This document shows positions 12,962-32,127 of a stretch of DNA of 32,127 nucleotides, piece by piece; positions within the stretch are counted from its first letter, which is position 1; every line of letters begins with the position of its first letter. This DNA comes from Bacteroidota bacterium (GTDB taxonomy: Bacteria > Bacteroidota > Bacteroidia > Sphingobacteriales > Sphingobacteriaceae): NCBI GenBank assembly GCA_013287375.1, contig JABDDX010000022.1:1-32127 (forward strand), given 5' to 3'. Made by a program: the position numbers and the translations under genes. The notes under the pieces are model-generated. The model was given only the letters and a program-made list of their open reading frames with translations. It was not told the DNA's origin and made no database searches.

Positions 12962-12962
12962 T

Positions 12963-12997
12963 AAAAAAAGCCCTTAGTAATCTAAGTGCTTTTTTAT
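12963..12997. terminator. Bidirectional terminator between convergent genes
   Basis: AAAAAAGC-C-CTTAG and CTAAG-T-GCTTTTTT pair around a TAAT loop with one internal mismatch, giving T runs on both strands. It separates the gene ending at 12961 from the old yellow enzyme ending at 13013. Confidence 0.8.
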
Positions 12998-13012
12998 TGA
13001 GTTTCTATTTTA

Positions 13013-14119: not shown

Positions 14120-14131
14120 ATAATTTTTAAT

Positions 14132-14431
14132 TTAAATTTCTGATTGAATGATCTGGTTCAGCAGAGCAAAACCTTCTTCGTTGCGCTGGTAGTAGGTCCA
14201 CTGCCCTACCCGGTTTGATTTAACCAGACCTGCACGTTGCAGCGTTGACAAATATTCGGACACGGTTGATTGCGTTAACCCGGCTTTCATTTGTATCTGC
14301 CCCACACAAACACCATTAGCATAACCGTGCACGGCCTGATCCGGGAAGTTAGTTTCCGGTTCTTTAAGCCAGTTAAGTATTTGCAAACGCGACTTATTTG
14401 AAAGTGCTTTGAATATTTCTACCTGATCCAT
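14132..14431 (-). CDS. ArsR-type winged-helix transcriptional regulator
   Basis: A 99-residue DNA-binding protein of the ArsR/SmtB fold. Helices start at MDQVEIFKALSNKSRLQILN, the recognition helix is in LTQSTVSEYLSTLQRAGLV, and the wing is RVGQWTYYQRNEEG. The metal-binding CxC of classic ArsR is absent; one cysteine (in NGVCVGQIQ) precedes the recognition helix, and the only other cysteine would be in the optional N-terminal extension. I choose the ATG at 14431, not 14467: family members begin with MDQVEIF, and a strong promoter ends 5 bases before 14431, inside the longer frame. The stop is 12 bases from the old yellow enzyme start, so the two form an operon that the regulator probably represses itself. 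Confidence 0.85.
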   Translation of the reverse strand: MDQVEIFKALSNKSRLQILNWLKEPETNFPDQAVHGYANGVCVGQIQMKAGLTQSTVSEYLSTLQRAGLVKSNRVGQWTYYQRNEEGFALLNQIIQSEI

Positions 14432-14435
14432 CCCA

Positions 14436-14467
14436 CAAAGATATATCGACTTTTCCCGATATGCCAA
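14436..14467 (-). promoter_or_regulatory. Promoter with embedded palindrome for the ArsR-OYE operon
   Basis: On the minus strand TTG (14467-14465), a 21-base spacer and TATCTTTG (14443-14436) form a full Bacteroidota -33/-7 promoter. The spacer carries an inverted repeat ATATCG...CGATAT (14443-14448 and 14457-14462, 8-base gap) where a repressor would block RNA polymerase. Only TGGG separates the -7 element from the ATG at 14431, so the transcript should be leaderless or nearly so. Confidence 0.6.
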
Positions 14468-14502
14468 TTATATGTTTGGATATGACAGTTGGTTGATAAA
14501 CG

Positions 14503-14540
14503 AAAAAGCCTGCGGATATGATCTGCAGGCTTTTTGTTTA
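14503..14540 (-). terminator. Strong hairpin terminator, symmetric
   Basis: AAAAAGCCTGC (14503-14513) pairs perfectly with GCAGGCTTTTT (14525-14535) around an 11-base loop, giving T runs on both strands. It most likely ends minus-strand transcription from the GH3 gene before the ArsR promoter. Confidence 0.75.
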
Positions 14541-14632
14541 TTGTCATTTCGACCAGAGGGAGAAATCTTCTTCGCCGTGCATAGTCCGCTATGCTTCTTG
14601 TAGAAGATTTCTCCCTCCGGTCGAAATGACAA
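14541..14632. repeat. REP-like 92-bp intergenic hairpin element
   Basis: TTGTCATTTCGACC at 14541-14554 is exactly complementary to GGTCGAAATGACAA at 14619-14632. The arms continue through GAGGGAGAAATCTTCT and AGAAGATTTCTCCCTC. The centre holds a second small hairpin, GCATAG-TCCG-CTATGC (14579-14594). I recognise this sequence type as a dispersed repeat in Sphingobacteriaceae and related genomes. No RAYT transposase lies in the window. Confidence 0.85.
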
Positions 14633-14649
14633 GGAGGAGAATTTTGGGT

Positions 14650-17010: not shown

Positions 17011-17115
17011 AACGTAGGATTTGTTGAGGCTGTAAATATATAATTTTAACCAATACCATTGCTTCATAATCAAACAATGTATTAAAAAGATTACTTATCC
17101 CTTATCCCAACAAAT

Positions 17116-17526
17116 TTAAAGCCTGCGATCGCGTTCATTTATAGCCAGATCATTGATGCTGGCAAAACGCTTTTTCATTAAGCCATTTTCGTCAAACTCC
17201 CAATTTTCGTTACCATAGGCACGAAACCATTGCCCGGTATGATCGTGGTATTCGTACTCAAACCTTACAGCTATTTTATTTTCGGTAAATGCCCACAACT
17301 CCTTTTTTAATTTATAGCTGAGTTCTTTTTTCCACTTTTCGGTTAAGAATTTAATCACTTCATCCCTACCGTTTATAAAAGCCGAACGATTACGCCATTC
17401 CGTATCAATAGTATAAGCAAGCGCGATGCGCTGTGGGTCCTGACTGTTCCAGGCATCTTCGGCTAGTTGAACTTTTTGTGTGGCAGTTTCAACGGTAAAA
17501 GGCGGCAAGGGCAGTTTTTGTTCCAT
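17116..17526 (-). CDS. NTF2-like protein, DUF1348 family
   Basis: A 136-residue single-domain protein of the nuclear transport factor 2 / SnoaL-like fold. Recognisable segments are [70 protein letters not shown] (in parts) and [11 protein letters not shown]. These match what I know as the DUF1348 family, cytoplasmic with no assigned reaction. The cone-shaped fold typically binds small hydrophobic ligands, and many members are enzymes or stress proteins; function here is unknown. It precedes the GH3 gene by about 105 bases on the same strand and is divergent from gluconokinase. Confidence 0.82.
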
Positions 17527-17611
17527 TATGCAAGCTAGGGTAATTTCACCGACGTATTATGGTAATATTTATGGCTTGTATGGTATTAATCTTACAAATT
17601 GCAGGCATCAA

Positions 17612-17638
17612 CCCTAAATTAAAACCTGTAATTTAGGG
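17612..17638. promoter_or_regulatory. Perfect inverted repeat just upstream of gluconokinase
   Basis: CCCTAAATT (17612-17620) and AATTTAGGG (17630-17638) form a 9-bp perfect inverted repeat with a 9-base spacer, ending 15 bases before the ATG at 17654. It may be an operator for a dimeric sugar-acid regulator or a hairpin in the mRNA leader. There is no T run, so it is not a terminator. Confidence 0.5.
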
Positions 17639-17653
17639 CGATAATATATTTTA

Positions 17654-19147
17654 ATGCAGGCATACTTATTAGGTATTGATATTGGCACCGGCAGCACAAA
17701 AGCGGTGGCTGTTGATCTGGATGGAAAATCAGTTGGGAGTTCACAACACCATTACCCCGTGGATAGTCGGCAAGCTGGTTATAGTGAACAAGACCCTGAA
17801 ATTATTTTCAAAGCCTTTGTTAATTGTATTACCGATGTGGTGAAAGCAATCGGCAATTCTCCTATAGCCATAAGTTTAAGCAGCGCCATGCATAGCGTTA
17901 TCCCGGTTGATAAAAATGGCAATGCTTTGGCCCCCATGATTACCTGGGCAGATTCCAGAAGTGAGAACGTAGCAGAGCGAATAAGAAATTCAGACCAAGG
18001 CCCTGATATTTATAAAACATCCGGCACACCGATACATGCCATGACGCCGCTTTGCAAAATCATCTGGATAAAGGAAAATAAGCCCGGATTATTTGCAGCC
18101 AGCTATAAATTTATTTCGATAAAGGAATATATATGGCACCGGTTATTTAATGTTTTTGAGGTTGATTATGCCATCGCTTCTGCAACCGGATTATTCGATA
18201 TTATAAAACTTGATTGGAATACTGTTGCCTGTGATTTGGCGGGGATAATAAAAGATCAGCTTTCGGCACCGGTAAATACCACTTATAAAAGAGCAGATTT
18301 TAGTACTTCGATAGCCGGAATGCTATCTATTGATGCCAGCACACAATTTGTTATTGGCGCCAGCGATGGTTGCTGTGCCAACCTGGGTAGTTATGTTACA
18401 GAACCGGGCGTAGCATCGCTAACCATTGGCACAAGTGGCGCAGTGCGTATAACCAGCAAACAGCCTGTATATAATTATCAGAGCATGATATTTAACTATC
18501 TGCTGAATGAAAATACTTTTGTTTGCGGCGGGGCAATTAACAATGGCGGCATTGTGTTGGATTGGTTATTCAAAACATTCTCAGGCAAAAACCCGTTAAC
18601 CCACGCTGATTATGAATTGCTATTTGAAGATATTGCCAATATCCCTGCGGGCAGTGAAGGGCTGATATTTTTGCCCTATTTATATGGTGAACGGGCTCCT
18701 ATTTGGGATACCAAAAGTTGTGGTGTATTCTTCAACATCAAACCACAACATACACAATCACATTTTTTACGCGCAGGATTAGAGGGTATTTGCTTTGCAT
18801 TGAATAATGTAATAGAATCGGTTGAGAAATCGTCACCTATCGAACGAATTCACATTAGTGGTGGATTTATAAGTTCACCTGTTTGGGTACAAATTCTGGC
18901 TGATATTACTCAAAAACAATTAATTACCATTCAGCAGGACGATGCATCCGCTTTAGGGGCCATATTCCTGGCTGATGAGGCATTGGGTCTAAATAAACTT
19001 GGTAAGCGGCCCAAAATGGATAACGATGTAATGGCATCGCCCAATAAAAGCAACAAGCAAGTTTATACAGACCGCTTTTCGATATTTAAAAAATTGTACC
19101 AGGATTTGAAAGAGACAATGCATTGGATGCATGAAAACAATCAATAA
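17654..19147 (+). CDS. gntK: Gluconokinase, FGGY family
   Basis: A 497-residue sugar kinase of the FGGY family. It resembles Bacillus-type gluconokinase along its length: LGIDIGTGSTKAV at residues 6-18, SLSSAMHSVIPVD near 75-87 and APMITWADSRSE near 93-104. It also has SGTPIHAMTPLCKI, ISIKEYIWHRLF, FVIGASDGCCANLGS, LTIGTSGAVR and IHISGGF. Xylulokinases and glycerol kinases differ at the SAMHS and SGTPIHAMTP segments, which supports gluconate as substrate. The reaction is D-gluconate + ATP to 6-phosphogluconate, feeding the pentose phosphate pathway. No gluconate permease or 6-phosphogluconate dehydrogenase is in the window; the gene stands alone behind a palindrome. It converges with the peptidase gene, leaving 12 bases between them. 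Confidence 0.88.
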   Translation: MQAYLLGIDIGTGSTKAVAVDLDGKSVGSSQHHYPVDSRQAGYSEQDPEIIFKAFVNCITDVVKAIGNSPIAISLSSAMHSVIPVDKNGNALAPMITWADSRSENVAERIRNSDQGPDIYKTSGTPIHAMTPLCKIIWIKENKPGLFAASYKFISIKEYIWHRLFNVFEVDYAIASATGLFDIIKLDWNTVACDLAGIIKDQLSAPVNTTYKRADFSTSIAGMLSIDASTQFVIGASDGCCANLGSYVTEPGVASLTIGTSGAVRITSKQPVYNYQSMIFNYLLNENTFVCGGAINNGGIVLDWLFKTFSGKNPLTHADYELLFEDIANIPAGSEGLIFLPYLYGERAPIWDTKSCGVFFNIKPQHTQSHFLRAGLEGICFALNNVIESVEKSSPIERIHISGGFISSPVWVQILADITQKQLITIQQDDASALGAIFLADEALGLNKLGKRPKMDNDVMASPNKSNKQVYTDRFSIFKKLYQDLKETMHWMHENNQ

Positions 19148-19159
19148 CCTCTCGCCCTG

Positions 19160-20605
19160 CTACAATTTTGATAATACCCCCCAACCTGAACAAGCATCCC
19201 AGCCCGGCCCGGCGGTATATCCTGTATCGACAGAAGTAGTTTTATTATTACCGCTTGTTATATCCCGACATAAACCGGGGGTACTATAAAGTTGCGGATG
19301 AATATACCCTGATGGTTTTCCGTTTTGCTGATTAAGCAATGCTATTAAGCCTGCCATTAGCGGGGCTACTGCACTGGTACCTCCTATAACTAACTCCTGC
19401 CCATCAACCAAAACCTTGTACCCTGTATCCGGGTCAGCATTCGCGGCTACATCGGGTACACCACGACCTTTAAATTGAGTGTCTATTTCTAAAGGTACAT
19501 TAGCATTGGCTTGATAATCGGGCAAGGGAAAATAACTGCTTACGCCGCCACCAGAGGCTGAGGTATTGGAATCATGCCAAACTACTTCCGAAGTAATAAC
19601 ATTGTTGTTAACCGTCAAACTGGTGCCACCACAAGCCAAGGCATAAGGGCTTGACGCTGGGAAATCCACGTGCACTTTGCCATCGGTTTCACCATCGCTT
19701 GAGCCACTATCGCCAGCGGCAATACAAATACTAACCCCTAATGATGCAGCGGTTTGAAAAGCTTCGTTAAAGTTATCCATAGCCTGCTGTGTCCAATTAA
19801 CCTCTGCCGACCCCCAACTGATTGAAATAACGGATGGATTATTGGTAGTGTCGTGTATCGCGGTGGTTATGGCATCCAAAAAGCCCTGATCGGTATTTGT
19901 AGTAAAGTAGACTACAATGTTTGCGCCGGGTGCAACGGCACCAGCTACTTCAATATCCAGCATCACTTCTCCATCCGCACCATTGGCTGTGGTTGGATCG
20001 TTTTTTCCACCATCAACAGCTATTGCTTTAACCTGGGGTGCAGTAATATTTAAGCTCTTAAAATAATTAGTAATATCAGCAGGCCGGAATCCGCCACCAA
20101 GTTCAATTATAGCTATACATTCCCCACTGCCATTAACATTTTGCGGGAAGCCATAAATTTTGGATAGTTGATCAGGCGTAAATGCCTGGGGTGCCTCGGC
20201 ATGCGAAATGATTCTACCGTTTTTTTTAGCTACCTGAAACATTGGACGCGCTATAGGTTTATTTTGCAATCCAAATACACCAACAACAATATCTTTTAGC
20301 TCCTCCGGGATTTGCACCTCCGGGCTAAAATCACGATAGTTGTTATGTTTTTTAAATTTGATATTGAACGCTGTTTCAAAATCACTAAGCTTACCGGTAA
20401 GCATTACACTTCGGCGGGCCAGATCAATTACAGCAGTACTCAGCAGGTGTTCATGAGCAAAGGCTTCAACCTTTGCCGCATCTTCCTGTGCTGAGGAATA
20501 ATCGTTTAGATATTGCTCGCGTGTAAGTAGTTTGCCTATTGGTGGCAGATCTTTTTTTCTACGCAGGCGTATTGTTACTGTGATATTTTCATCCTGTAAA
20601 TCCAT
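19160..20605 (-). CDS. Sedolisin (S53) serine-carboxyl peptidase, kumamolisin-like
   Basis: A 481-residue S53 peptidase with an N-terminal pro-domain (about 1-135, ending near FQVAKKNGR) followed by the subtilisin-like catalytic domain. The catalytic set is complete: E213 and D217 in GEVMLDIE, the oxyanion aspartate D299 in AAGDSGSS, and S411 in GGTSAVAPL. The calcium site near the end (CRDITSGNN, GPGWDACSGWG) is also present. Such enzymes cut proteins at acidic pH after removing their own pro-domain. No classical signal peptide is visible: the first 30 residues are charged and polar. Bacterial kumamolisin precursors also start this way, yet act outside the cell, so the export route is unclear. 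Confidence 0.92.
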   Translation of the reverse strand: MDLQDENITVTIRLRRKKDLPPIGKLLTREQYLNDYSSAQEDAAKVEAFAHEHLLSTAVIDLARRSVMLTGKLSDFETAFNIKFKKHNNYRDFSPEVQIPEELKDIVVGVFGLQNKPIARPMFQVAKKNGRIISHAEAPQAFTPDQLSKIYGFPQNVNGSGECIAIIELGGGFRPADITNYFKSLNITAPQVKAIAVDGGKNDPTTANGADGEVMLDIEVAGAVAPGANIVVYFTTNTDQGFLDAITTAIHDTTNNPSVISISWGSAEVNWTQQAMDNFNEAFQTAASLGVSICIAAGDSGSSDGETDGKVHVDFPASSPYALACGGTSLTVNNNVITSEVVWHDSNTSASGGGVSSYFPLPDYQANANVPLEIDTQFKGRGVPDVAANADPDTGYKVLVDGQELVIGGTSAVAPLMAGLIALLNQQNGKPSGYIHPQLYSTPGLCRDITSGNNKTTSVDTGYTAGPGWDACSGWGVLSKL

Positions 20606-20677
20606 ATAATTACAATACAGTTAAACAAGAAAAGTTTGAATATTTTTTAAATAAATCAAGAAAGATATATCCAGTAT

Positions 20678-21910
20678 TTAACTAGATAATTTGCTTAAGC
20701 GTTCGTTTATCGTATCCTGTATAACAGTAATCATATTGCTTACAGCTTTATCCAACATAAAATGCTTTTTGAATGACTCTGTGGCTCTTTCACCCATTTT
20801 TAATTTTTCATCGGTAGTTAAACTCAGCCACTGCTTTAACATGTTTTCCGTACCAATTAAATTATCATCTTCAACTATTCCTGCCCCTCCATTACTTATT
20901 TCATGCCAGATATTTACCTGGTTTGATATCAGGACGGGTTTTCCACACGCCATCGCCTCAACTACTGCTATTCCAAAATTCTCCTGATGACTAGGCAATA
21001 CGAATGCCTCACAACCATAAAATGCCCCCCATTTGCTTCCACCGCTTAACATACCGGGGAAGTAAATTTCATTTTTCAGTTCAGGATATTTTTTTACTTC
21101 AAGCCATATTTTCTCAGCAAAATTAGTATCCAAACCCGGGCCGGCTACTACTAGTTTGGGTAATTGAGTATTGGTTACTTTTGCAGCTTCCAGCAGCTTC
21201 AAATATGTCTTTATTAATAAATCAACACCTTTTTTTAAGTCAATACGGCCGAGGAATAAAAGATAAGGCTGATTTCCTAATCCTTCGCAAGATTGATTGA
21301 AAGCAAGTTTCATATCCTGGTTATATTCTGGCGGGTTATTAATACCATAACCTACATTGTATTCCTTTTTAGGCTTGTATGATTTGAATGTTTCACGAGC
21401 TAACAGCAATTCTGTTTCAGTGGTAAATAACAGCCCATCAGCATCGTTTATTACATCTCTTTCAACTATTGCCCAATACAATATGTTCCTTAAAGCTTTA
21501 AAGCGCCGTTCTTTAGCCCGTTGAAAATAGGGATCAAGCATGCCGTGAGGCATAACAAAAATGCTTGGAAGTTTATTTTCAGAACCTCTTTTTTTAAGCT
21601 TGTGCACTGCTTTCCATACAGCATAACTATGAAAACCCCATAAGCCATTAATAATAACCGCATCAAAGCGTGTAATATTTTCGGTTAACCAAGGTATTAG
21701 CTGTTTGGTATGATTTAAAAACCCATAGCTCGGCCCGAGGGAATGAAAAGGTGTAATATTGGATTTTAAATAATCAACCCCTGGAGGATCTAACGTAACA
21801 ACTTCATTAGAAACCGATTTTTGCTCAGATATTGAGATAAAAGATTTTACAGCTTCAGCAACACCACCCATAGCGGGATTAAGAGAAGGGGTAATATGTA
21901 GAATTTTCAC
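20678..21910 (-). CDS. Glycosyltransferase, GT4-like (GT-B fold)
   Basis: A 410-residue cytoplasmic or membrane-associated glycosyltransferase of the GT-B fold. The N-terminal domain has the acceptor-side glycine loop (HITPSLNPAMGGVAEAV). The C-terminal domain starts near YLLFLGRIDLKKGVDLLI and carries the nucleotide-sugar site SHQENFGIAVVEAMACGKPVL (309-326 core) with the E310/E318 EX7E pair typical of retaining GT4 enzymes. Such proteins add a sugar to a lipid-linked or polysaccharide acceptor. It stands alone, without other polysaccharide genes around it, so donor and acceptor cannot be predicted. Confidence 0.88.
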   Translation of the reverse strand: MKILHITPSLNPAMGGVAEAVKSFISISEQKSVSNEVVTLDPPGVDYLKSNITPFHSLGPSYGFLNHTKQLIPWLTENITRFDAVIINGLWGFHSYAVWKAVHKLKKRGSENKLPSIFVMPHGMLDPYFQRAKERRFKALRNILYWAIVERDVINDADGLLFTTETELLLARETFKSYKPKKEYNVGYGINNPPEYNQDMKLAFNQSCEGLGNQPYLLFLGRIDLKKGVDLLIKTYLKLLEAAKVTNTQLPKLVVAGPGLDTNFAEKIWLEVKKYPELKNEIYFPGMLSGGSKWGAFYGCEAFVLPSHQENFGIAVVEAMACGKPVLISNQVNIWHEISNGGAGIVEDDNLIGTENMLKQWLSLTTDEKLKMGERATESFKKHFMLDKAVSNMITVIQDTINERLSKLSS

Positions 21911-21934
21911 TATTTAAATAGGGGTATATTTCTA

Positions 21935-21942
21935 CAAAAGTA
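21935..21942 (-). promoter_or_regulatory. Candidate -7 element for the glycosyltransferase
   Basis: TACTTTTG on the minus strand fits TAnnTTTG and ends 24 bases before the ATG at 21910. The upstream DNA is almost pure A/T and no TTG -33 element is found at the right spacing. Confidence 0.35.
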
Positions 21943-22169
21943 TTTAATTATTAGTAATTTAATATAAATTAAATGTTATTAAAATAATATTAATAAATAG
22001 CCCATAAATATTATTACGTTTTCTTGAGCAAAAAGGCGCTTAATAAGTATTATTGAGCTGGAATTGATAGAAAGGCGAGGTATTATTGAATTATTGAAGA
22101 TTTATATTAAATGAGAGCCCCTGGTTTTAAGCAATGAATTATTAATAAGCGATGGGTTATTAAAAGAAA

Positions 22170-22823
22170 TTATAATTTAATAAGCTCGCTTTTGAGTGCT
22201 GAAATCACCAGACCTGTTCTTGATTTTGTTTCAAATTTTTCAAAAAGTGCTTCCCTGTAATTATTAATGGTGAATGGACTTAAATTCATCATATCAGCTA
22301 TTTCTTTATAAGTAAGATCAGAGCAGCATAGTTCCAAAAACTTCAATTCATTTGCACTTACCTGTATCTTAGATGTTTTTACAGGCACATTATTTTGAAT
22401 ATTATTCAGCAACTTACCCGAGACAAGATCATTAATAAAGAAGGTTTGTTTTTCAATAGTTTTAATAGCGTTAATTAGATCCGCTGCTTTTGCTTGTTTA
22501 AGCATGTACCCACCTGCGCCACTTTTTAACATATTTATTATGGGCGTATCTTCTTCAAACATACTTAAGGCCAGCACCTTAATTTGTGGGTAATTTTGTT
22601 TTATCCATCGGGTACTTTCATATCCGTCCATTACCGGCATGGTAATATCCATAAGTATAACGTCGGGCAAGGGCTGCATGGGCAGTTTCCGTATCATTTC
22701 TGCACCATCACCTGCATCAAAAACCACCTCGATCTCGTTTGACTCGGTGAGCAAATGAGCTAAACCCTGCCTAAATAAAGTATGATCATCGACTATTCCT
22801 ATTGCTATTTTTTGTGTTTGCAT
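22170..22823 (-). CDS. NarL/LuxR-family response regulator
   Basis: A 217-residue two-component response regulator. Receiver domain (about 5-120): acidic pair D12/D13 in IVDDHTLFRQG, phosphoacceptor D59 in VILMDITMPVMDG, and switch lysine K109 in GGYMLKQ. A linker leads to a LuxR-type helix-turn-helix (about 150-210) with LTYKEIADMMNLSPFTINNYREALFEKF. It is the last gene of a four-gene operon, starting 2 bases after the histidine kinase stop, so the kinase is surely its partner. It should bind DNA when phosphorylated; targets are unknown. The AT-rich gap after it (21943-22169) shows no clear terminator. Confidence 0.93.
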   Translation of the reverse strand: MQTQKIAIGIVDDHTLFRQGLAHLLTESNEIEVVFDAGDGAEMIRKLPMQPLPDVILMDITMPVMDGYESTRWIKQNYPQIKVLALSMFEEDTPIINMLKSGAGGYMLKQAKAADLINAIKTIEKQTFFINDLVSGKLLNNIQNNVPVKTSKIQVSANELKFLELCCSDLTYKEIADMMNLSPFTINNYREALFEKFETKSRTGLVISALKSELIKL

Positions 22824-22825
22824 TA

Positions 22826-23614
22826 TTAGTTAGAGGGTGCTGTAATTACAATAACAGACCCGTTACCAGGTATTGAAGTGATTGTGGCTGTACCATTTAT
22901 CATAGCTGCACGTCTTTTTATATTGTAAAGACCCATTCCCATCTTAAGATTTAATTTTTCATCAACATTAAATCCAATACCATTATCACTAATAGTTAGT
23001 TTAAAGGAGCTGTTATCCTGCTCTAAAATAATAACTATTTTTGATGCTTTAGCATGCTGTATTATATTATTTATAACCTCCTGAAATAAGCGAAAAACCA
23101 TCGTTTCTTTAGCACTATCTGCAATTGATTCAAAATTATTTTTCTCGAAACTTATTTGATATCGTTCAGATCTTTTTAGCCATTCCAGTTCAAACTCAAT
23201 GGCTGCGGCAAGCCCCTTGCTAATCAATTCTTCGCCATGTAACAAGCGGGATAGCGCTTTCAGTTCATTTATAGAACGCCTTGTGAGGTCATCAGTAAGT
23301 GTTATTTTGCTGGCTATTTTGCTATTTTCTTCTAAATCAATAGTACTTAATGTAATAGTGATCAGGCTTAACAGCTGGCCAATATTATCGTGAAGATCAT
23401 TGGCAACAGTTTTAAGTGTTTGCTCCTGAACCTCCATTTGAGTTTTCAGCAACTCATTTTCAAATGTTGTTTTTAGCCAAACTTTTTCTTCCAGATGCTT
23501 CTTTTTCCTGCGATTGTAGGATAGCACGTACAAGATCAAAAAGCATGGAGCTATTAAAAATATGATAGAGGTTAGGCCTATCAGGAATATGATTTCCTCT
23601 GAAGATATCTGCAT
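22826..23614 (-). CDS. Sensor histidine kinase, HisKA_3 type with no extracytoplasmic domain
   Basis: A 262-residue kinase of the NarX/DesK class. I use the ATG at 23614 (MQISSEEIIF); the longer frame from 23662 is possible, but the shorter start gives a single N-terminal membrane helix (about 7-33) directly. A basic coiled-coil linker follows, then the dimerisation/phosphoacceptor helix with H75 in ANDLHDNIGQLLS. The ATPase domain has the N box VINNIIQHAKAS, ISDNGIGFN and GMGLYNIKRRA. No periplasmic loop is present to sense a signal, so sensing must go through the membrane segment or partner proteins. Its 5' end overlaps the upstream membrane-protein gene by 34 bases, and its stop is 2 bases from the regulator, which implies tight coupling. 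Confidence 0.92.
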   Translation of the reverse strand: MQISSEEIIFLIGLTSIIFLIAPCFLILYVLSYNRRKKKHLEEKVWLKTTFENELLKTQMEVQEQTLKTVANDLHDNIGQLLSLITITLSTIDLEENSKIASKITLTDDLTRRSINELKALSRLLHGEELISKGLAAAIEFELEWLKRSERYQISFEKNNFESIADSAKETMVFRLFQEVINNIIQHAKASKIVIILEQDNSSFKLTISDNGIGFNVDEKLNLKMGMGLYNIKRRAAMINGTATITSIPGNGSVIVITAPSN

Positions 23615-24237
23615 ATAAAAGCGTAAGACCAAAAGGAGTACAGAATTACATCTAATATACAAAAAATGATATACCTAATAGAGAATTCGTAACTAATGGA
23701 AGGATATTTAATAAGGTAATCAAAAAACAAGTTACATGCTGTGCTTCCGAAATAGAAGAACAGCGTACCGCTAACCCACCAAAAAGGAGCATAAAACAAT
23801 AACCTTTCGAAATGCTCGTCTTTTAGTTTTAGGTAATAATAGTAAAGGCTTGCCAATACAAATACAACCGACATAACGGAGGCAGTTATAGACACAAAGT
23901 TGTTAAAGTGATTGAGGACAAGCTCAGTAAAATACATAATCAGGAAAATACCGAGCCAGATTATTAACCACTTAATTTTAGGATGATAGGCTTTGTATAG
24001 ACTATAAAAAAAGTAGCTGGTAACAAAACACTCCGGTATAACAGATAGGTTATAAAGCGGAATATTTGATACATGTAATGATGTACGGATATATATACCG
24101 GCAACTTCAACAATACAGGTTAATAATAAATACCATATCAGCAGCCTCCAGGCCGGATCTTTATCTTTAAATAAAAATATTAATCCGGCCAGAAAGCATG
24201 CAAGTTCTGATATTGTATTAAATGTTATAAATATCAT
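23581..24237 (-). CDS. Seven-helix membrane protein of unknown function in a signalling operon
   Basis: A 218-residue integral membrane protein with seven evident hydrophobic helices and almost no soluble part. Two ends are basic (FKDKD after helix 1; CRYLQRKSYS at the C-terminus, likely cytoplasmic). Conserved-looking membrane residues include the NLSVIPECFVTSYFFYSLY segment (helix 3) and APFWWVSGTLFFYFG (helix 6). The start at 24237 is set by an ATGA overlap with the stop of the lipoprotein gene; the longer frame from 24288 begins inside that gene with unlikely sequence. I recognise no family. Its place between a lipoprotein and a kinase without a sensor domain suggests that it transmits or receives the signal; this is inference. 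Confidence 0.75.
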   Translation of the reverse strand: MIFITFNTISELACFLAGLIFLFKDKDPAWRLLIWYLLLTCIVEVAGIYIRTSLHVSNIPLYNLSVIPECFVTSYFFYSLYKAYHPKIKWLIIWLGIFLIMYFTELVLNHFNNFVSITASVMSVVFVLASLYYYYLKLKDEHFERLLFYAPFWWVSGTLFFYFGSTACNLFFDYLIKYPSISYEFSIRYIIFCILDVILYSFWSYAFICRYLQRKSYS

Positions 24238-24827
24238 TGAGTAATTAAAGTAGCTCCGATAGTAGCACAGTTGCTTGGCGGCGGGCACATCTCTCCGCGA
24301 TTTTCAGGTGATGTACCTACACTAAGTATAAATCCTTTTGAATCGGATTTTGAGTTAGATGTTGGATCAATATTATTACCATAATAATCACGGTGAAATT
24401 TAAGACTATCTTTGGTAGATACCATTACCAGCGTGGTATGCCCCCAGTATTTACGCGCAGGTATATGGCCGAACTTATCATTTGGAGTATAAACACTGTC
24501 GTACGTAGCCAGATAAAAACGTACACCATCGCCACCCTCAGCTTTTATCTTGTTTACCATTGCCTGCAACCTGTCGATACCAAACCATATGGTACGGCTA
24601 TTAGGTAACTTTTTTACTTTGTTCAACTGCTCACCAGTGTAAACAGAATCAACATAGCCTGCATGTTTCGCGTAATTGTCTACGTATTTTTTTGCCACAG
24701 TTACGCTCACCGTGTCAGAATCTAATGAACTGACTTTAGCAGCTACGTCGGCATGTTGGTTTTGCTGGCATGAACTAAAGCCAAATACAGCTAAACCCAG
24801 GTAAATTAATGTGTTTTTAATTGTCAT
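24234..24827 (-). CDS. Lipoprotein of unknown function, first gene of a signalling operon
   Basis: A 197-residue exported lipoprotein: a hydrophobic leader ends in the lipobox GFSSC with C20 as lipidated residue, followed by QQNQ. The mature part has a helical YVDNYAKHAGYVDSV segment, then SRTIWFGIDRLQAMVNKI near 77-94, GGDGVRFYLATYDSVY near 98-113, and WGHTTLVMV near 128-136. It ends with a cysteine-bearing MCPPPSNC motif near 180-187. The two C-terminal cysteines could form a disulfide in the periplasm. I recall similar hypothetical proteins in Bacteroidota but no function. The gene overlaps the next one by 4 bases (ATGA), which indicates translational coupling within the operon. It may be the ligand-binding part of the sensor, which is inference from position. 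Confidence 0.78.
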   Translation of the reverse strand: MTIKNTLIYLGLAVFGFSSCQQNQHADVAAKVSSLDSDTVSVTVAKKYVDNYAKHAGYVDSVYTGEQLNKVKKLPNSRTIWFGIDRLQAMVNKIKAEGGDGVRFYLATYDSVYTPNDKFGHIPARKYWGHTTLVMVSTKDSLKFHRDYYGNNIDPTSNSKSDSKGFILSVGTSPENRGEMCPPPSNCATIGATLITQ

Positions 24828-25006
24828 GATAGTTATAAATTAAGGTTTACCGAAAATGATTATTTATATGTGGATAAACAATGCATTTCAAACTTTTTTT
24901 ATCCCTAAAAACAACCTGATAAAAAGGCAATTCTACCCTGTTAGCTGCCGGACTTCGTTCCTAAATTTACATAACAAATCCGAAGGGATAACCTAAACCT
25001 TTTCAA

Positions 25007-25047
25007 ATAAACAATGCGTACCGGTTTATGCCGGTGCGCTTGTTTAT
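25007..25047 (-). terminator. Terminator hairpin after the GH2 gene
   Basis: ATAAACAA (25007-25014) pairs with TTGTTTAT (25040-25047) and ACCGG pairs with CCGGT around a TTTATG loop. A small internal mismatch lies between the two stems. On the minus strand the hairpin runs into TTGTTTATTTG. It starts 29 bases after the GH2 stop and ahead of the signalling operon. Confidence 0.65.
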
Positions 25048-25075
25048 CTTATAAATTATCGCTCATTATTCTACC

Positions 25076-27967
25076 TTATTTCTCTACCGACGCTACTATA
25101 GCCGGCATTTGTGTGGGAACAGTGGTAATTTCCAATTTATTTTCTTTGAGGCCTGGTGATGTTGATGTTAAAACAATTCGTCCGGGTTCGCCGGTTGATT
25201 GTACAATTACCTGCGCCAGGCCGTTGAATAGTTTTCGTTTCCATTGCGCTGGTGGTATGATGATTTGCACGGTACCGGGGTTTGTGTTATTATAATCCCA
25301 GCTATTTTTATTAATGAAAGGCGTAGTAACAATGGCTATACTATTCTTTCCGGGATGAAAGATATTTTTTGTGAGCTTAAGCTCCTTACGCGCAGCTGAA
25401 CTATCATTGCTTTGTACAAACTGCCCATTAATATAAATAGATTGTGTTTTGCCGATATTGTTATAAAACAAGGTAAGCGCAGCATCATCAATATTATCCG
25501 GCATTTGGATGGCACCACGATAAACCACCGCTTTGGCCGTTTCGGGAAATCTGATGCTTTTAAACGCAGGCGGCCAGTTTGTATCATCAAAATCGGTGGT
25601 GACTTCGGGGCGGTTTTCGATGTTTTCAACCACTTTCTCTTTCAGGTTTTCAATATTAACCGGGATCACCTGCTCTATATATTGGTCAGGTTCCAGTGAT
25701 GTTTCACTGCCATTGCCTACCCCGATTATTTTTCCAGGGCCTTGTATACTGAATGCGATTTGATTATTGGCGGTAGGTACCCACAAGCCGTTTTTATCAT
25801 TTACCTGAATTTTTATGACAGATATATCTGCCCTATTCGCTTTTATCACTGAGCGATCAGCTGTGGCTAATAATGCTGCCGGGGCATCGGTTGTTTGTAC
25901 TATATCATCAGCTACTTTTTTACCTGCCTTATAGCCAATAGCTTCTAACTTGCCAGGTTGGTAAGCTACCGACCATTCCAGATGCCCGTTGCGTGGCATA
26001 GTTTTTTTGCCAAGGCTTTTTTTGTTCAGGAACAGCTCCACTTCATCGCTATTACTGTAAACCCAAACGGGTATATCCTGTCCATCTTTTCCCTTCCAGT
26101 TCCAATGCGGTAAAATGTGCACCACATCTTTATCCATCCACCACGACTTTAAATACCAAACATCATCCTTCGGAAATCCACAGGCATCCAACATACCATG
26201 GTATGAATAAATTGACGGCCAACCGAATGGAGTAGGTTCGCCACGATAATCAAAACCTGTCCAGATAAACATACCGGCTAAATACGAGCGTGTCGCGTAA
26301 TGTTTCCAGCCTTGTTCAATACTGAAAGATTCACTATTTCGAGGCCGATCATAGGCTGCTAATTGATGTTTAGCCAGGTCATCAACGTAAATCCCCCGGG
26401 ATGCTGTTGTAGCCCCCTCTTCAGTGCCCCAGCTAAGCTGGTTAGGGAATTTTTGATGTTGCTCATCGGTATTTTTGTTGACCACATAATTATAGCCCAT
26501 TAAATCCATAACGGTTGAAATACCATTACCACCAATCCCACCGCTGTACGCAGCCGTAATGTACCTAGTCGAATCAATTGTTTTTGCATAAGCCTGCATA
26601 GTGGTTGCTACCCGTGCTCCAGTAACCGTTCCTTCCATATTCCACTCCTCATTACCTATCGACCAGGCTATTATGCATGGATGATTCCTATCGCGGAGCA
26701 TCATTTGTTTTAATTCATTCAAATGATAATTGGTTACGCCCATTAAACGATTTTCGTCTAACACCAACATTCCCAATCTGTCGCAAGCATCCAAAAACTC
26801 AGGTGTAGGCGGATTGTGCGAGCAACGGATGGCATTACAGCCGAAAGCTTTCTGGGCTTTGATCCTAAAATCCTGCAAAGCATCGGGCATGGCTACGCCT
26901 ACGCCGGCATGATCCTGATGATTGTCAGCTCCGGTAATTTCAAGGTGCTTTCCGTTTAAAAAGAAACCATGGTTGGCATCAAATCTAATAGTCCGTATAC
27001 CGAAAGTAGTTTCGTATTGATCTACAATAGCGCCATCCTTGCTTACAGTAGTTATCAGCTTATGTAAATAAGGTGTATCTATCGACCAGAGTTTAGGATT
27101 TGTTATGTTGAGATTGCTTGAAAAATCTTTTTCCCCTAATAAATTAAGGTTCAAATCCTTTTGCTCATCAGATGCGATGACTTTGCCATCAGCATTAAGA
27201 ATTGTTTGTTTTACACTAAAATTAGATACGCTGCTATCAGCATCATTATCCACCGTTACATGGGTTGATATTATAGCCTGACCATCTTTTAATTTAGTGG
27301 TAACAAAAGTACCATTACGTGCTATATGCAATCGATTGGATTTATTTAGCCAAACATGGCGATAAATACCTGCCCCCTCATAAAACCAGCCTTCTTCCAT
27401 AGTTGCATCAACCCTTACTGCTATAACGTTAGTGCCTCCGTAATTGAGATATTCAGAAATATTATACTCAAAACTACTATACCCGCTTTCTTCTGTGCCT
27501 AAATAATGTCCGTTTACCCATACAATGGAGTTACGAAAAACACCATCAAATGCGACGCTGATATGTTTGCCTAAATCTGAAGCCGGAATAAAGAAAGTTT
27601 TACGATACCAGCCTACGCTTGCGTCAGGGAAGTTACGGCCGATGGCCTTGAACCCATGACTAAAACTTCCTTTGGGAGAGAATGGCTGCTCCACGGCCCA
27701 GTCATGGGGTAGGTTAACTTTTCGCCATGCACGATCATCAAAACGAGGATCGGCAGCTCCATCGCCATAACCAGCCTTTGCGAAATAGGAAAAATAGCTT
27801 GTGCCGTTGTTAAAATCCTTATTTGTATCGTATGGATGCCCAAATGCAAAATGCCAGTTGTAATCCATCAACAAATGCTCACGCGGCGAAGGTTGTGTTT
27901 GGCCGAATGTATACTTAGTGGTTATTATTGCAAGAAACAAGAATAATATTTTCTTAAACTGAATCAT
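25076..27967 (-). CDS. Glycoside hydrolase family 2 beta-galactosidase-like enzyme, secreted
   Basis: A 963-residue GH2 enzyme with a signal peptide (about 1-22, ending TFG before QTQP). Domain order: a jelly-roll sugar-binding domain (about 30-215) with FDGVFRNSIVWVNG, and an Ig-like sandwich (about 215-328). The TIM barrel (about 330-640) carries the acid/base E440 in WSIGNEEW and a likely nucleophile E516 in SWGTEEGATT. An Ig-like domain follows (about 730-800, with FSIQGPGKIIGVGNG), and a second sugar-binding-like module lies near 800-915. GH2 enzymes of this layout mostly act on beta-galactosides or beta-glucuronides; the exact specificity cannot be read off. It lies downstream of SusD on the same strand and likely degrades the glycan that SusCD imports. 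Confidence 0.9.
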   Translation of the reverse strand: MIQFKKILFLFLAIITTKYTFGQTQPSPREHLLMDYNWHFAFGHPYDTNKDFNNGTSYFSYFAKAGYGDGAADPRFDDRAWRKVNLPHDWAVEQPFSPKGSFSHGFKAIGRNFPDASVGWYRKTFFIPASDLGKHISVAFDGVFRNSIVWVNGHYLGTEESGYSSFEYNISEYLNYGGTNVIAVRVDATMEEGWFYEGAGIYRHVWLNKSNRLHIARNGTFVTTKLKDGQAIISTHVTVDNDADSSVSNFSVKQTILNADGKVIASDEQKDLNLNLLGEKDFSSNLNITNPKLWSIDTPYLHKLITTVSKDGAIVDQYETTFGIRTIRFDANHGFFLNGKHLEITGADNHQDHAGVGVAMPDALQDFRIKAQKAFGCNAIRCSHNPPTPEFLDACDRLGMLVLDENRLMGVTNYHLNELKQMMLRDRNHPCIIAWSIGNEEWNMEGTVTGARVATTMQAYAKTIDSTRYITAAYSGGIGGNGISTVMDLMGYNYVVNKNTDEQHQKFPNQLSWGTEEGATTASRGIYVDDLAKHQLAAYDRPRNSESFSIEQGWKHYATRSYLAGMFIWTGFDYRGEPTPFGWPSIYSYHGMLDACGFPKDDVWYLKSWWMDKDVVHILPHWNWKGKDGQDIPVWVYSNSDEVELFLNKKSLGKKTMPRNGHLEWSVAYQPGKLEAIGYKAGKKVADDIVQTTDAPAALLATADRSVIKANRADISVIKIQVNDKNGLWVPTANNQIAFSIQGPGKIIGVGNGSETSLEPDQYIEQVIPVNIENLKEKVVENIENRPEVTTDFDDTNWPPAFKSIRFPETAKAVVYRGAIQMPDNIDDAALTLFYNNIGKTQSIYINGQFVQSNDSSAARKELKLTKNIFHPGKNSIAIVTTPFINKNSWDYNNTNPGTVQIIIPPAQWKRKLFNGLAQVIVQSTGEPGRIVLTSTSPGLKENKLEITTVPTQMPAIVASVEK

Positions 27968-28227
27968 ATTTTTATGTAAAGGATTATCAATAACGCAGGT
28001 ACAATTTAATTTCTAAATCATCGGTTGCAATAAATACAAAACCGAACATATAACGTATAACAAGAAAATGCGACTCATGGCAATAAAGCCATTGCATGTA
28101 TCTTTAAGATCATAAATGTTCGATTGACAATTAAGTTTATGGAGCTAAAAGTACTTAACATTTTCTTTTCATCCAAGAAAACGATTAGGTATTAATCTGA
28201 TAAGATTTGGCTAGTCAAATTGTTATT
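27968..28227. other. Intergenic region upstream of the GH2 gene
   Basis: Together with the adjoining terminator this gives about 330 bases without a gene. It should hold the GH2 promoter, because a strong terminator separates GH2 from SusD. I found no exact TAnnTTTG near the start codon. A small inverted repeat GCAAT-AAAGCC-ATTGC sits within GGCAATAAAGCCATTGC around 28080-28097. Nothing else is evident. Confidence 0.4.
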
Positions 28228-28279
28228 TATTATTCAATAAAAAAGCAAGGGACTTCCCCTGCTTTTTTATTGAATAATA
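28228..28279. terminator. Long perfect terminator after SusD
   Basis: A perfect 19-bp stem, 28228-28246 paired with 28261-28279, starts from the loop side with GC followed by six A/T pairs. The loop region can itself pair as AGGG with CCCT. The outer arms are A/T-rich, so it can act on both strands. It ends transcription of the SusCD unit 18 bases after the SusD stop. Confidence 0.85.
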
Positions 28280-28296
28280 AGAGATGAGATACTTAT

Positions 28297-29961
28297 TTAT
28301 TTAAGTATCCACATAATGCCATTGATGTCATCATTACCACCATATTGGCTGGCTAATGCTTTCTGATAATTTACTGTATTTCCTGTTCTATCACTTAAAG
28401 GATATAAGAACCGGGTTGCTATACGCTGACCATTATCAGTGCCAGGTCCGGTACTGAAATTAGGCACCCCTGTTCTGCGATAGTTAAAATAAGCTTCTAA
28501 ACCTGAATGGCGGAATAAGGCTATATATTTTTGTTGCAAAATTTGTTTTAACCCTACTGCGCCACTTGCATATTGTACATTAATCTGTGAATAATAAGTA
28601 CTCCAGTTAACACTTATATTATAGGTATCATAATTTGTTAAATCGGCAACGCCAGTTGTTGAACTTGCCGCTGGATGATAAAAATACGCAGTATATGTTC
28701 CGGTAAGCGGGATACTGTAAGATGCCATTGAGGCTTGTATACCTGCTATGTAATAAGTTTCGGCATTACCACTTGCCCAACCGCGGTTAATACCTTCGGC
28801 AATATTAAACATTAATTCAGGGTAACCAATTTGTATGCTTGGTTCACCTGTATAGGTCGAGTAATACCGTTTCCTATTGATAAATGAGTAGCGTTGCAGC
28901 CCCGCATTACTATACATTGTACCCAAATCTAATCCCGGATCAGCACCTGCAAATGATGAAAATGCTGTAGGACTTTGATGCAATGTATCAACCTGGTAGC
29001 GTGAAGGTTCTGCAACAGCAAAAATCCTCGGATCCTGCAACAAATCAAGCAGGCCAACATAAGTTTGAGACATGTTTTGCCTTGAACCGCTCTGACCAAA
29101 AATATCCGGATACTGCGGATAGTAATTGGTATTAATTGTTGAGATAAATGTATATTGAAGATTATCTGTAGCGCTTTGCATCAACGGATATTTAGTGGGG
29201 TTGCCAATAATCGAAGCAAATTGAGCCGGAACATTTAAATCAGGATCGGCGGATTGCTTGCTTAATTCAATCAGCAATCTAATTCTGAAGGTATTTACTA
29301 CCTTTTGCCATTGAGTTAAACTATTTCCATAAAATATATCTCCGCCTAACGTTGACCCTAAACCTGTTCCACCCACACTTGGGTTAGCAATTAGCTGAGT
29401 AAGATCAGCATTAGCGCTTTCTAACCATGCTAATGATTGCAGCATTACTGCTTTCTGAGTATCATATGCAGGGGTAAGATTAGCAAGGCCTTGTAAAGCC
29501 TGGGTCATTGGAATATCACCTCTTTCCAAACTCATTTTACTGAAAAAGTATGCTCTGAAAAATTTCCCCATTGCTTCATATGGGTTAACAGCTGCTCCGC
29601 CCGAAGCAGCTGCCTTACTTTCCATTGCCAAAACATTTGTTAACGTAGAATAGTAATCAGCTCCCGGATCAAAATCATAGGTATTATTACCATAATAATC
29701 GTAGTTATAAATGTAATACTGCCCCCATATTTCATCTTTATTTGATGCATTGGGATATACCATACTACTTTGTGTACTGCTGCTGTAAGCACCATCAGGT
29801 AAATCAACCATATTAGTTAATACTCCTGTTAAAAGCAAAGATGCAGATACGCTATTGGGTAAGTTGTTATTGGTAGTGTCGTCAATAAAACTTTTTTTGC
29901 AGCTGCTTACTGTCAGCAAGATCATTACCGGCAGAAAATAAATTATTAATATCTTTTTCAT
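28297..29961 (-). CDS. SusD/RagB family nutrient-binding outer-membrane lipoprotein
   Basis: A 554-residue SusD-like lipoprotein, the surface lid that binds glycan and hands it to the SusC channel. I take the ATG at 29961 (MKKILII) rather than the one two codons upstream. The leader ends in the lipobox TVSSC with the lipidated C21, followed by KKSFIDD. Helical TPR-like pairs appear at FFRAYFFSKMSLERGDIPM and WLESANADLTQLI, and the typical end includes QKYIALFRHSGLEAYFNYRRTG (in parts), with RTGVPNF and FLYPLSDR. Family members of this sequence style are often called SusD/RagB type. It starts 20 bases after the SusC stop (29982), so the two are co-transcribed, and a strong terminator follows. 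Confidence 0.93.
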   Translation of the reverse strand: MKKILIIYFLPVMILLTVSSCKKSFIDDTTNNNLPNSVSASLLLTGVLTNMVDLPDGAYSSSTQSSMVYPNASNKDEIWGQYYIYNYDYYGNNTYDFDPGADYYSTLTNVLAMESKAAASGGAAVNPYEAMGKFFRAYFFSKMSLERGDIPMTQALQGLANLTPAYDTQKAVMLQSLAWLESANADLTQLIANPSVGGTGLGSTLGGDIFYGNSLTQWQKVVNTFRIRLLIELSKQSADPDLNVPAQFASIIGNPTKYPLMQSATDNLQYTFISTINTNYYPQYPDIFGQSGSRQNMSQTYVGLLDLLQDPRIFAVAEPSRYQVDTLHQSPTAFSSFAGADPGLDLGTMYSNAGLQRYSFINRKRYYSTYTGEPSIQIGYPELMFNIAEGINRGWASGNAETYYIAGIQASMASYSIPLTGTYTAYFYHPAASSTTGVADLTNYDTYNISVNWSTYYSQINVQYASGAVGLKQILQQKYIALFRHSGLEAYFNYRRTGVPNFSTGPGTDNGQRIATRFLYPLSDRTGNTVNYQKALASQYGGNDDINGIMWILK

Positions 29962-29981
29962 GATCATTTATCCTCTTTTGA

Positions 29982-31736
29982 TTAAAATGTTAATTTAAAG
30001 TTGATGCCATAGCTACGTATGGTAGGTGATTGCAATACAGATTGACCTGTAGTACCATTATATTGGTTTAGATCAACGTCTTCAAACTCCTTGTCAGCAT
30101 AGAAGTACAATAAATTACGACCGTATATAGAGGCTGTGGCTGTGGAGATAAAAGATTTCTCTAACCATTTTTTAGGGAATGAATATCCAAATGTTACCTC
30201 ACGAAGCTCTGCATAAGTTTTACTCATCAGGTTAGCTTCATCAACATTGTAGTAGGAGCTAACATATCCCTGGATAAAGGCTGTTTGGGTATTTGGCGCG
30301 AACTGCAAACTACTATAATTAAGTATTTGCCCTGTTTTGGAATCGTAATTGGGAGCAACTCCGTTAGATATTACTACTCCCGGGCCAACATATGTGCCCT
30401 TGTAACCAGGTTTCCCATAATTTAACCAGTCTTGGTAGCGAGCAGCACCAATTGCACCTTCAGCAGTTATTGCATTTGAACCACCAACAGTGGTTTTCAG
30501 GTGCATGTAATCTATCATGTGCCCACCAACTGAACCATCAAACTGAAAACCGAAATTGAATTGTTTGTAAGTAAAGTTATTGGCAATTGTCCAGCTGTAG
30601 TCAGCATTAGCATTTCCTAAAAACTGATTTACAGGGTTAACCATTGGCGTGCCGTTGGCATTATTAATAATTTGGCCTGTTTTTGTGCGAACAAATGCGG
30701 TACCAAAGAATTCATCTGTACGGTCGCCAACACTTACATATCCACCGTTGTAAGCATATGACGTTTGCCCGGCGGGTAATTTTTCAAAATACTGTTGGAA
30801 ACGAGACCAGTTAACCAACACGCTCCAGCTAAAATCTGAAGATTTAACAGGTAAGCCGCTTAAAGAAACTTCCTGACCGGTTTTCCTGGTTTTTAAAGCA
30901 TTCAGATATTCAGTGGTGTAACCAGTTGAGGTTGCTACGGGGTTTGCCAAAATTTGAGGCCCGTCAATATATTGAAATGCTGTAGCACTTAAACCTAAAC
31001 GGTTCTGCAAAAATTTAGCATCAAATCCTTCTTCGTAATTAACGCGGGTTGATGTTTGAATATTTGATTGGTATAATGAAGTAGTAGAATAACCCGCTGT
31101 TTGGTTATTGTACGGTTTACTTGTAGAATAAGATGGATTTAGCGCATAGTTTGGTCCATTATATGGTGACAGATATGTAGCACCATAATCAAGCGGATTA
31201 TCATAAAGTGACGGGCCAGTGCTGCCTCCAAAAGCCGTTATTGAGCTAAATGGAGCAGGGCCTATAGTTGGGCTAGTTTCGTCGGCACGAACATTTGAAT
31301 AGGATGCTCTTACTTTTAAGAAAGTAATAAACTTCGGCATCTCAATATAATCAGAAACTACTGACGCTAAAGATAAACTTGGGTAGTAATAAGTAGTTGG
31401 CACCTGGAACGCGGATGTTTTATCAACGCGACCTGTGCTCGAAAGGGTGGCGTATTTGCCAAAGCTTGCATCTAAGGAATAAAAAGCGCTCGCCACCATC
31501 ATGTACGAGCTAAAGCTTGTAGCCTGTAGTGCGTTTTCGGAGTTACTGAATGCATAAACACCGGGTACATTTAAATAATTAGTTGATACCCAGCTTGAGT
31601 TGTAAGAAAAATCGCGAAAGTTACCACCTACTAAACCAGACAGGTTGAGGAACTTTTTAACAGTATAATCGTAATTTAATAAAGCCTCAGTATTGTTATC
31701 AAACAAATCACGGCGATCTTCACTCAGACCGTACAA
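29982..31736 (-). CDS. SusC/RagA family TonB-dependent receptor, beta-barrel part only (5' end lost at a junction)
   Basis: The last ~585 residues of a SusC-type outer-membrane transporter: beta-strands of the barrel with GLVGGNFRDFSYNSSW, SPYNGPNYALNPSYS, ATAFQYIDGPQILANP, and the typical end IYGRNLLYFYADKEFEDVDLNQ (in parts) ...RSYGINFKLTF. A full SusC has about 1000 residues, so the signal peptide, carboxypeptidase-D-like domain, TonB box, plug and first strands are missing. The frame stays open to about 31784, but homologous sequence seems to stop near 31736 (ALYGLSEDRRD). The only local start would be TTG at 31736, which is not a credible start. Beyond it the opposite strand codes for a SusC plug. 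SusD follows on this strand. Confidence 0.88.
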   Translation of the reverse strand: MYGLSEDRRDLFDNNTEALLNYDYTVKKFLNLSGLVGGNFRDFSYNSSWVSTNYLNVPGVYAFSNSENALQATSFSSYMMVASAFYSLDASFGKYATLSSTGRVDKTSAFQVPTTYYYPSLSLASVVSDYIEMPKFITFLKVRASYSNVRADETSPTIGPAPFSSITAFGGSTGPSLYDNPLDYGATYLSPYNGPNYALNPSYSTSKPYNNQTAGYSTTSLYQSNIQTSTRVNYEEGFDAKFLQNRLGLSATAFQYIDGPQILANPVATSTGYTTEYLNALKTRKTGQEVSLSGLPVKSSDFSWSVLVNWSRFQQYFEKLPAGQTSYAYNGGYVSVGDRTDEFFGTAFVRTKTGQIINNANGTPMVNPVNQFLGNANADYSWTIANNFTYKQFNFGFQFDGSVGGHMIDYMHLKTTVGGSNAITAEGAIGAARYQDWLNYGKPGYKGTYVGPGVVISNGVAPNYDSKTGQILNYSSLQFAPNTQTAFIQGYVSSYYNVDEANLMSKTYAELREVTFGYSFPKKWLEKSFISTATASIYGRNLLYFYADKEFEDVDLNQYNGTTGQSVLQSPTIRSYGINFKLTF

Positions 31737-32127
31737 GGCAGCGACTTTACAACCGCGCGTGACCCTAATCCTATTACCGGTTTAACAGGTAAAGTTGCAG
31801 GTTTATCTGTAGGCGCATCGGCAGAATTACTGGGCGTACCTAGTGTTTTAATGCGGGGAGATGCTGTTACACTATACGTAGTTGACGGTTTCCCGATCAA
31901 CACGGATACATTTAACCTTAGCCCTGATGATATTGAAACAATCACCGTATTAAAAGGACCCGCAGCGGCGGCTTTATATGGTAGCCGTGCACAAAATGGC
32001 GCCATATTAATCACAACCAAAAAAGGTGACAAAAATAAGAAAGGCTTTACTGTTGAATTGAACAGCAGTACTGAAATAAACAAAGGTTTTCTTACTTTTC
32101 CTAAAACACAACACTCATACGGCCCGG
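31731..32127 (+). CDS. SusC/RagA family TonB-dependent receptor, plug-domain part, inverted orientation (both ends incomplete)
   Basis: The plus strand from about 31731 to the window end reads VQGSDFTTARDPNPITGL, then GKVAGLSVG, LMRGDAVTLYVVDGFPIN, LSPDDIETITVLKGPAAAAL, YGSRAQNGAILITTKKG and finally FLTFPKTQHSYGP. This is the classic TonB-receptor plug of SusC proteins (about residues 120-260 of ~1000). The frame has no stop to the window edge. It has no start codon or N-terminal region at its left end: the left edge abuts the barrel of a SusC on the other strand. It may be a separate divergent SusC gene that lost its 5' part, or the missing part of the same gene in flipped orientation. Confidence 0.88.

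What the first reader, a model, noticed from the sequence alone, without database searches (positions are those of the whole stretch)
31715..31745. Head-to-head junction of two SusC pieces: inversion, deletion or chimera
Left of about 31736 the minus strand codes for a SusC barrel; from about 31731 the plus strand codes for a SusC plug. Both pieces lack the N-terminus and meet within ~10-20 bases in opposite orientation. One gene cannot read through this. Known precedent: invertible SusC/SusD loci in Bacteroides fragilis, where recombination inside SusC genes switches variants. Alternatives are a deletion that removed the N-termini of two divergent SusC genes, or an inverted chimera from whole-genome amplification or mis-assembly. 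The plug piece precedes the barrel piece in normal gene order by roughly 300 residues, which would fit a fold-back chimera of a single gene. No clear inverted repeat and no recombinase gene is visible in the window. The junction is under 400 bases from the window end; if that is a contig end, an artefact becomes more likely.
Basis: partly seen in the sequence, partly recalled or inferred. Interest (0 to 1): 0.8.

Follow-up and report, generated by a model that had tools for sequence, protein, structure and literature searches.

The report
Fold-back assembly artefact in transporter gene
The two head-to-head gene pieces come from one ordinary sugar-uptake receptor gene that was folded back on itself at the end of an assembled contig, almost certainly while the DNA was amplified or assembled, so it is an artefact and not a biological switch.

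Summary
The window is an entire contig (32,127 bp) of a 58.5%-complete, 188-contig assembly, Mucilaginibacter by its best named match. The junction lies at 31722/31723, 405 bp from the contig end. Both pieces belong to ONE susC gene, intact in Mucilaginibacter sp. L196 (91% nt): the barrel piece is its 3' part; the plug piece is joined inverted from 1,168 bp upstream, with 2 bp of overlap. In 83 of 83 fetched loci plug and barrel lie on the same strand. The breakpoints share no inverted repeat (9 of 40 columns; random mean 10.1), and 30 scanned frames hold no recombinase. The same lesion occurs in unrelated genes of this assembly: contig C111 ends in such a fold-back, and 5 of 60 sampled contigs carry an inverted copy of >=50 bp from within 5 kb, four of them directly beside N-gaps, against 0 of 137 size-matched L196 pieces. 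This is the published signature of inverted MDA chimeras (PMC1855051), or an equivalent assembly fold-back. Not a SusC shufflon.

The parts
29982..31723 (-). 3' (barrel) part of a susC gene, truncated at its 5' side by the junction
   Evidence: 97% aa / 91% nt to L059 (Mucilaginibacter sp. L196) 5999-7740; TIGR04056 positions 469-981
31722..31723 (.). crossover point; 2 bp (AC) fit both sides
   Evidence: overlap of the two BLASTN segments against L059
31722..32127 (+). inverted piece of the plug region of the same susC gene, running to the contig end
   Evidence: 90.6% nt to L059 4831-5236; Pfam Plug; best match is the same gene as the barrel's in G032 and G022
28297..29967 (-). intact susD partner gene (SusD-like_2)
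   Evidence: Pfam PF12771 E 6.2e-56; next to the susC barrel in 62 of 64 loci, the other two ending inside susC

Best explanation
It is an artefact. During whole-genome amplification (most likely phi29 multiple displacement amplification of one or few cells) a strand copying the susC gene towards its 5' end was displaced after the barrel part. It re-annealed by a few bases to a nearby displaced strand of opposite polarity about 1.2 kb away in the same gene, and was extended back in the sense direction. The chimeric molecule was then assembled as the tip of the contig. SHOWN: one gene, inverted join, 1,168 bp apart, 2-bp overlap, contig tip, and like lesions elsewhere in the assembly. INFERRED: that the DNA was MDA-amplified and that coverage was low there (no reads or source record seen); an equivalent fold-back in library making or assembly would leave the same trace. 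The confidence given is for an artefact of either origin.
For: (1) Both pieces match one intact gene in close relatives: L196 at 91% nt; G032 at 92% (plug) and 85% (barrel) aa. (2) 83 of 83 fetched loci have plug and barrel on the same strand, spacing 759-816 bp. (3) The breakpoints have no inverted similarity beyond chance, 9 of 40 columns, 72% of random pairs reach that, and a 2-bp overlap. (4) It sits 405 bp from a contig end. (5) Same lesion elsewhere: C111 (L162) ends with about 830 bp inverted from about 0.9 kb away with 9 nt of microhomology, giving one frame with a Peptidase_C1 start and a polyprenyl-synthetase end. Inverted copies of >=50 bp at >=95% within 10 kb occur in 5 of 60 contigs (504 kb) against 0 of 137 size-matched pieces (1.197 Mb) of L196. 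Four of the five start directly at one of only 15 scaffold gaps in those contigs. For two of them, L147 and L149, the search of L196 shows collinear flanks and no copy of the inverted piece between them. (6) This matches the published signature of MDA chimeras: 85% inverted, 83% of inversions joined from <10 kb apart, complementarity of 2-21 nt in 76.8% (PMC1855051, parts 1 and 2 of 4 read).
Against: No reads were available, so coverage and an uninterrupted allele could not be looked for. The amplification method and origin of G000 are unknown; a full 16S gene in a 58% genome only hints at a single-cell genome. Of the 8 sampled contigs that map to the L196 stretch, only one (L162) has a terminal inversion; one more (L178) has a direct 37-kb jump at the edge of a tRNA-His gene that may be natural. 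L149's inverted copy is near a contig end but not at a gap. L173 was inconclusive against L196, L161 had no match there, and L184 was not searched against it. The 60 contigs were not drawn at random: C60-C95 by fives, C100-C150 and C155, 4.7 to 18.9 kb, so the longest contigs were not sampled. The control is a different assembly, and I have no known MDA assembly for comparison. Up to the contig end, an in-place inversion of the 1,168-bp segment would look identical.
Confidence: 0.95

Rival explanations
1. A genuine in-place inversion of about 1.17 kb inside one susC gene, by a site-specific invertase (intragenic switch) or as a one-off mutation.
For: Geometry up to the contig end is the same as for a fold-back. 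Invertible SusC/SusD loci and within-gene inversions are known in Bacteroides (PMC5729914 and PMC12632263, passages only).
Against: No inverted repeat at the crossover; 0 of 83 loci inverted; no recombinase among 30 scanned frames (the rest of the genome was not searched for one); like lesions in unrelated genes at gaps and contig ends. Neither the missing 5' part nor the middle part was found in the assembly, so the partner junction could not be looked for.
Confidence: 0.03
2. A deletion removed the 5' parts of two divergent susC genes and joined the remainders head to head.
For: The orientation would fit: both pieces face the junction with their gene-5' sides.
Against: Both pieces have as best match the same single gene in L196, G032 and G022, at orthologue-level identity; two paralogues would point to two genes.
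Confidence: 0.01
3. Mis-assembly or library chimera without MDA, for instance in a metagenome-assembled genome. This is a variant inside the artefact reading, and its share is counted within the 0.95.
For: The genome could be a MAG; contig tips are error-prone.
Against: Inverted joins from within a few kb, with microhomology where measured and repeated over the assembly, are the specific MDA pattern (PMC1855051); but the method of G000 is unknown, so this is not excluded.
Confidence: 0.15

Closest known systems
Inverted chimeras of multiple displacement amplification (Lasken & Stockwell 2007, PMC1855051; parts 1 and 2 of 4 read)
   Same: Two segments of one locus <10 kb apart joined in inverted orientation, few-nucleotide overlap, intervening segment missing, breakpoints inside unrelated genes, recurrent in the assembly.
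   Different: Use of phi29 MDA for this genome is not documented in anything seen here.
Bacteroides fragilis susC/susD (ragA/ragB) intergenic shufflon
   Same: A susC gene is involved.
   Different: There, extensive inverted repeats overlap the susC start codon downstream of an invertible promoter (PMC5729914, passages). Here the break is inside the coding region, without repeats at the crossover, and only one gene is involved.

Membership tests
MDA-type inverted chimera | Two segments of one neighbourhood joined in inverted orientation with the intervening part missing | tested here: met
   L059 5999 side joined to inverted 4831 side
MDA-type inverted chimera | Segments usually <10 kb apart | tested here: met
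   1,168 bp
MDA-type inverted chimera | Short complementarity (2-21 nt) at the join | tested here: met
   2 bp against L059, the minimum; the true G000 sequence beyond the break was not found in the assembly, so it is measured on a relative at 91% identity
MDA-type inverted chimera | Similar joins elsewhere in the same assembly, unrelated to gene function | tested here: met
   L162 terminal fold-back, 1 of 8 mapped contigs; 5 of 60 contigs with inverted copies, 0 of 137 control pieces; 4 of the 5 beside N-gaps
MDA-type inverted chimera | DNA was amplified with phi29 polymerase | not testable with these tools
   G000 is unnamed; no reads or source record
SusC/SusD shufflon (B. fragilis type) | Inverted repeats at the crossover | tested here: not met
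   9 of 40 columns identical, random mean 10.1. Nearest listed in L059: an 11-nt pair at 91% that starts 16 bp and 3 bp inside the two breakpoints, one of 18 pairs listed in the gene. In the window a 20-nt pair at 75% (31108-31127 / 31717-31736) spans the junction but pairs it with a third place, not with the other breakpoint
SusC/SusD shufflon (B. fragilis type) | Recombinase gene nearby | tested here: not met
   No recombinase family among 30 window frames scanned with Pfam; elsewhere in the genome not tested
SusC/SusD shufflon (B. fragilis type) | Inverted orientation or exchanged susC cassettes seen in relatives | tested here: not met
   83 of 83 loci have plug and barrel on the same strand; exchange of whole cassettes was not examined

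The most novel reading that the evidence does not exclude
A repeat-independent, in-place inversion of about 1.17 kb inside a susC gene that reversibly disables one SusC/SusD transporter in part of the population.
Probability: 0.02. Interest if true: 0.5.

Novelty: not a real feature. Interest (0 to 1): 0.06.

Why it matters
It removes a false lead for antigenic or nutrient-uptake switching. It also shows that this assembly carries fold-back tails at some contig tips and scaffold gaps, so apparent fusions, head-to-head genes or invertible loci near its sequence ends should not be read as biology without read support.

Tried and rejected
Two different susC genes joined: rejected, since both pieces match one gene. 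Site-specific inversion: disfavoured for lack of repeats at the crossover and of a recombinase in the scanned frames. Missing gene parts elsewhere in the genome: a DNA search of G000 with L059 1-6100 returned nothing for 4453-4830 or 5237-5998 (40 of 65 first-look candidates scored). Literature search for a single-cell Mucilaginibacter source: 6 papers listed, none opened, none clearly the source. Searches on MDA chimeras and single-cell assemblies gave listings, of which only PMC1855051 was opened. A 37-kb direct jump in L178 (17-nt overlap at the edge of a tRNA-His gene) was not counted as a chimera because it could be natural. L155's 34-bp inverted pair fell out of the >=40 and >=50 counts by length; the six pairs at >=34 bp are L147, L149, L155, L161, L173 and L184. 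An earlier, looser census at >=30 bp and >=90% (20 contigs and the window) also listed self-overlapping palindromes, which were not counted, and one 32-bp pair in L143 at 90.6% that falls below the later limits. Rows dropped before counts: hits under 84% identity or 80 bp and contigs whose longest hit was 600 bp or less. The 83 loci come from two searches (19 + 64) and were not checked for the same genome appearing twice.

Full report
What is there. Its best named match is Mucilaginibacter sp. L196, followed by other Mucilaginibacter and Pedobacter. Minus-strand ORFs give an intact SusD-like lipoprotein (28297-29967) and, upstream of it in gene order, the barrel part of a SusC (29982 to the junction). 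From the junction to the contig end the plus strand codes for a SusC plug region.

One gene, folded. Mucilaginibacter sp. L196 (L059) holds one intact susC gene (stop-to-stop frame 4453-7740, 1,095 codons). Window 31723 down to 28295 matches L059 5999-9427 at 91.3% over 3,429 bp without gaps; window 31722-32127 matches L059 4831-5236 at 90.6% on the opposite strand. So the sequence reads up the gene to position 5999, jumps to 4831 and reads back down. The two matches share 2 bp. Plug and barrel also point to the same gene in the next relatives, G032 and G022 (92% plug; 85% and 83% barrel). In 83 of 83 fetched loci plug and barrel lie on the same strand, 759-816 bp apart. Of the 64 named-collection loci, 61 have a frame of at least 1,000 codons; two of the other three are cut by contig ends and one has a shorter frame of 859 codons. 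The rest of the gene (L059 4453-4830 and 5237-5998) was not found in the incomplete assembly.

No recombination site. If an invertase had made the join, the two breakpoints would carry inverted copies of one sequence. Aligned about the crossover they agree in 9 of 40 columns; 5,000 random position pairs in the same gene average 10.1, and 72% reach 9. An 11-nt inverted pair (91%) starts 16 bp and 3 bp inside the two points, not at the crossover, and is one of 18 inverted pairs listed in the gene; in the window a 20-nt pair at 75% spans the junction but matches a third place, 31108-31127. The two 200-bp neighbourhoods share one 8-nt inverted seed where shuffles give 0.65. No recombinase family was found in 30 translated window frames; the rest of the genome was not searched for one.

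The same lesion elsewhere in the assembly. I sampled 60 of the 188 contigs, by number and not at random (C60-C95 by fives, C100-C150, C155; 504 kb), and as control took 1.2 Mb of the L196 genome. Of the 60, 8 match that stretch by more than 600 bp. One, C111 (L162), is collinear down to its position 8701 and then turns round for its last 830 bp or so, with about 0.9 kb left out and 9 shared nucleotides at the join. The result is one frame with a Peptidase_C1 start and a polyprenyl-synthetase end. Another, L178, makes a direct jump of 37 kb at the edge of a tRNA-His gene. The other six show no terminal rearrangement in the parts that match; two of them (L163, L183) match only in part. A census of inverted copies (>=50 bp, >=95%, within 10 kb) finds 5 in the 60 contigs and 0 in 137 pieces of L196 cut to the same lengths. 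Four of the five begin exactly at one of the 15 runs of N in those contigs: the loose end of a sub-contig consists of an inverted copy of sequence 0.6-5 kb away. The fifth, in L149, lies about 140 bp from its contig end. For L147 and L149 the L196 genome has collinear flanks, and no copy of the inverted piece was listed between them. L173 was inconclusive, L161 gave no match in L196, and L184 was not tested that way. Fold-back tails at sequence ends thus recur in this assembly and have nothing to do with SusC.

Mechanism and known precedent. In MDA of a single E. coli cell 85% of 475 chimeras were inversions with intervening deletions, 83% of the inversions joined segments under 10 kb apart, 76.8% of chimeras showed complementarity of 2 bp or more (up to 21) at the join, and about one chimera arose per 22 kb (PMC1855051, parts 1 and 2 of 4 read). 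The window's junction fits the first three points, the overlap only at its minimum. That G000 was MDA-amplified is an inference from this pattern, from its incompleteness, and weakly from a full 16S gene in the assembly. A fold-back from library making or assembly in a metagenome is the residual version of the same reading.

Comparison with SusC switching. In B. fragilis the relevant loci have extensive inverted repeats overlapping the start codons of susC homologues downstream of an invertible promoter (PMC5729914, passages), and a review notes SusCD-linked and within-gene inversions (PMC12632263, passages). The features tested here (repeats at the crossover, recombinase nearby, inverted orientation in relatives) are not met. 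A true in-place inversion of the 1,168-bp segment would look the same up to the contig end, so it cannot be excluded formally without reads; I give it about 3%.

Verdict. An artefact at a contig tip; interest low. The useful by-product is a warning about inverted tails in this assembly.

Noticed in passing
window 28195-28294: A second break in gene order: window 13011-28194 matches L196 contig C17 (+) in three pieces and 28295-31723 matches L196 contig C8 (-) (only window 12128-32127 was searched). The GH2 gene beside susD here was not found in any of 64 loci, which reach at most about 4.4 kb past susD. The 100-bp spacer holds a 54-bp imperfect palindrome (terminator-like). Natural rearrangement or another chimera: undecided.
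   Followed up: partly
window 14541-14632: A roughly 92-bp imperfect palindrome that is a dispersed repeat: matches at 6 places in 1.2 Mb of L196 C8 and in 5 of 60 sampled contigs of this genome, and at further places in L196. REP-like element (name recalled).
   Followed up: partly
window 282-321: Perfect 40-bp palindrome between ORFs, with no other match in the window, the 60 sampled contigs or 1.2 Mb of L196; looks like a terminator.
   Followed up: partly
L178 (G000:C131) 5750-5766: Direct join of sequences 37 kb apart in L196, with a 17-nt overlap at the edge of a tRNA-His gene (5750-5824) near the contig end: direct chimera or natural event at a tRNA.
   Followed up: partly
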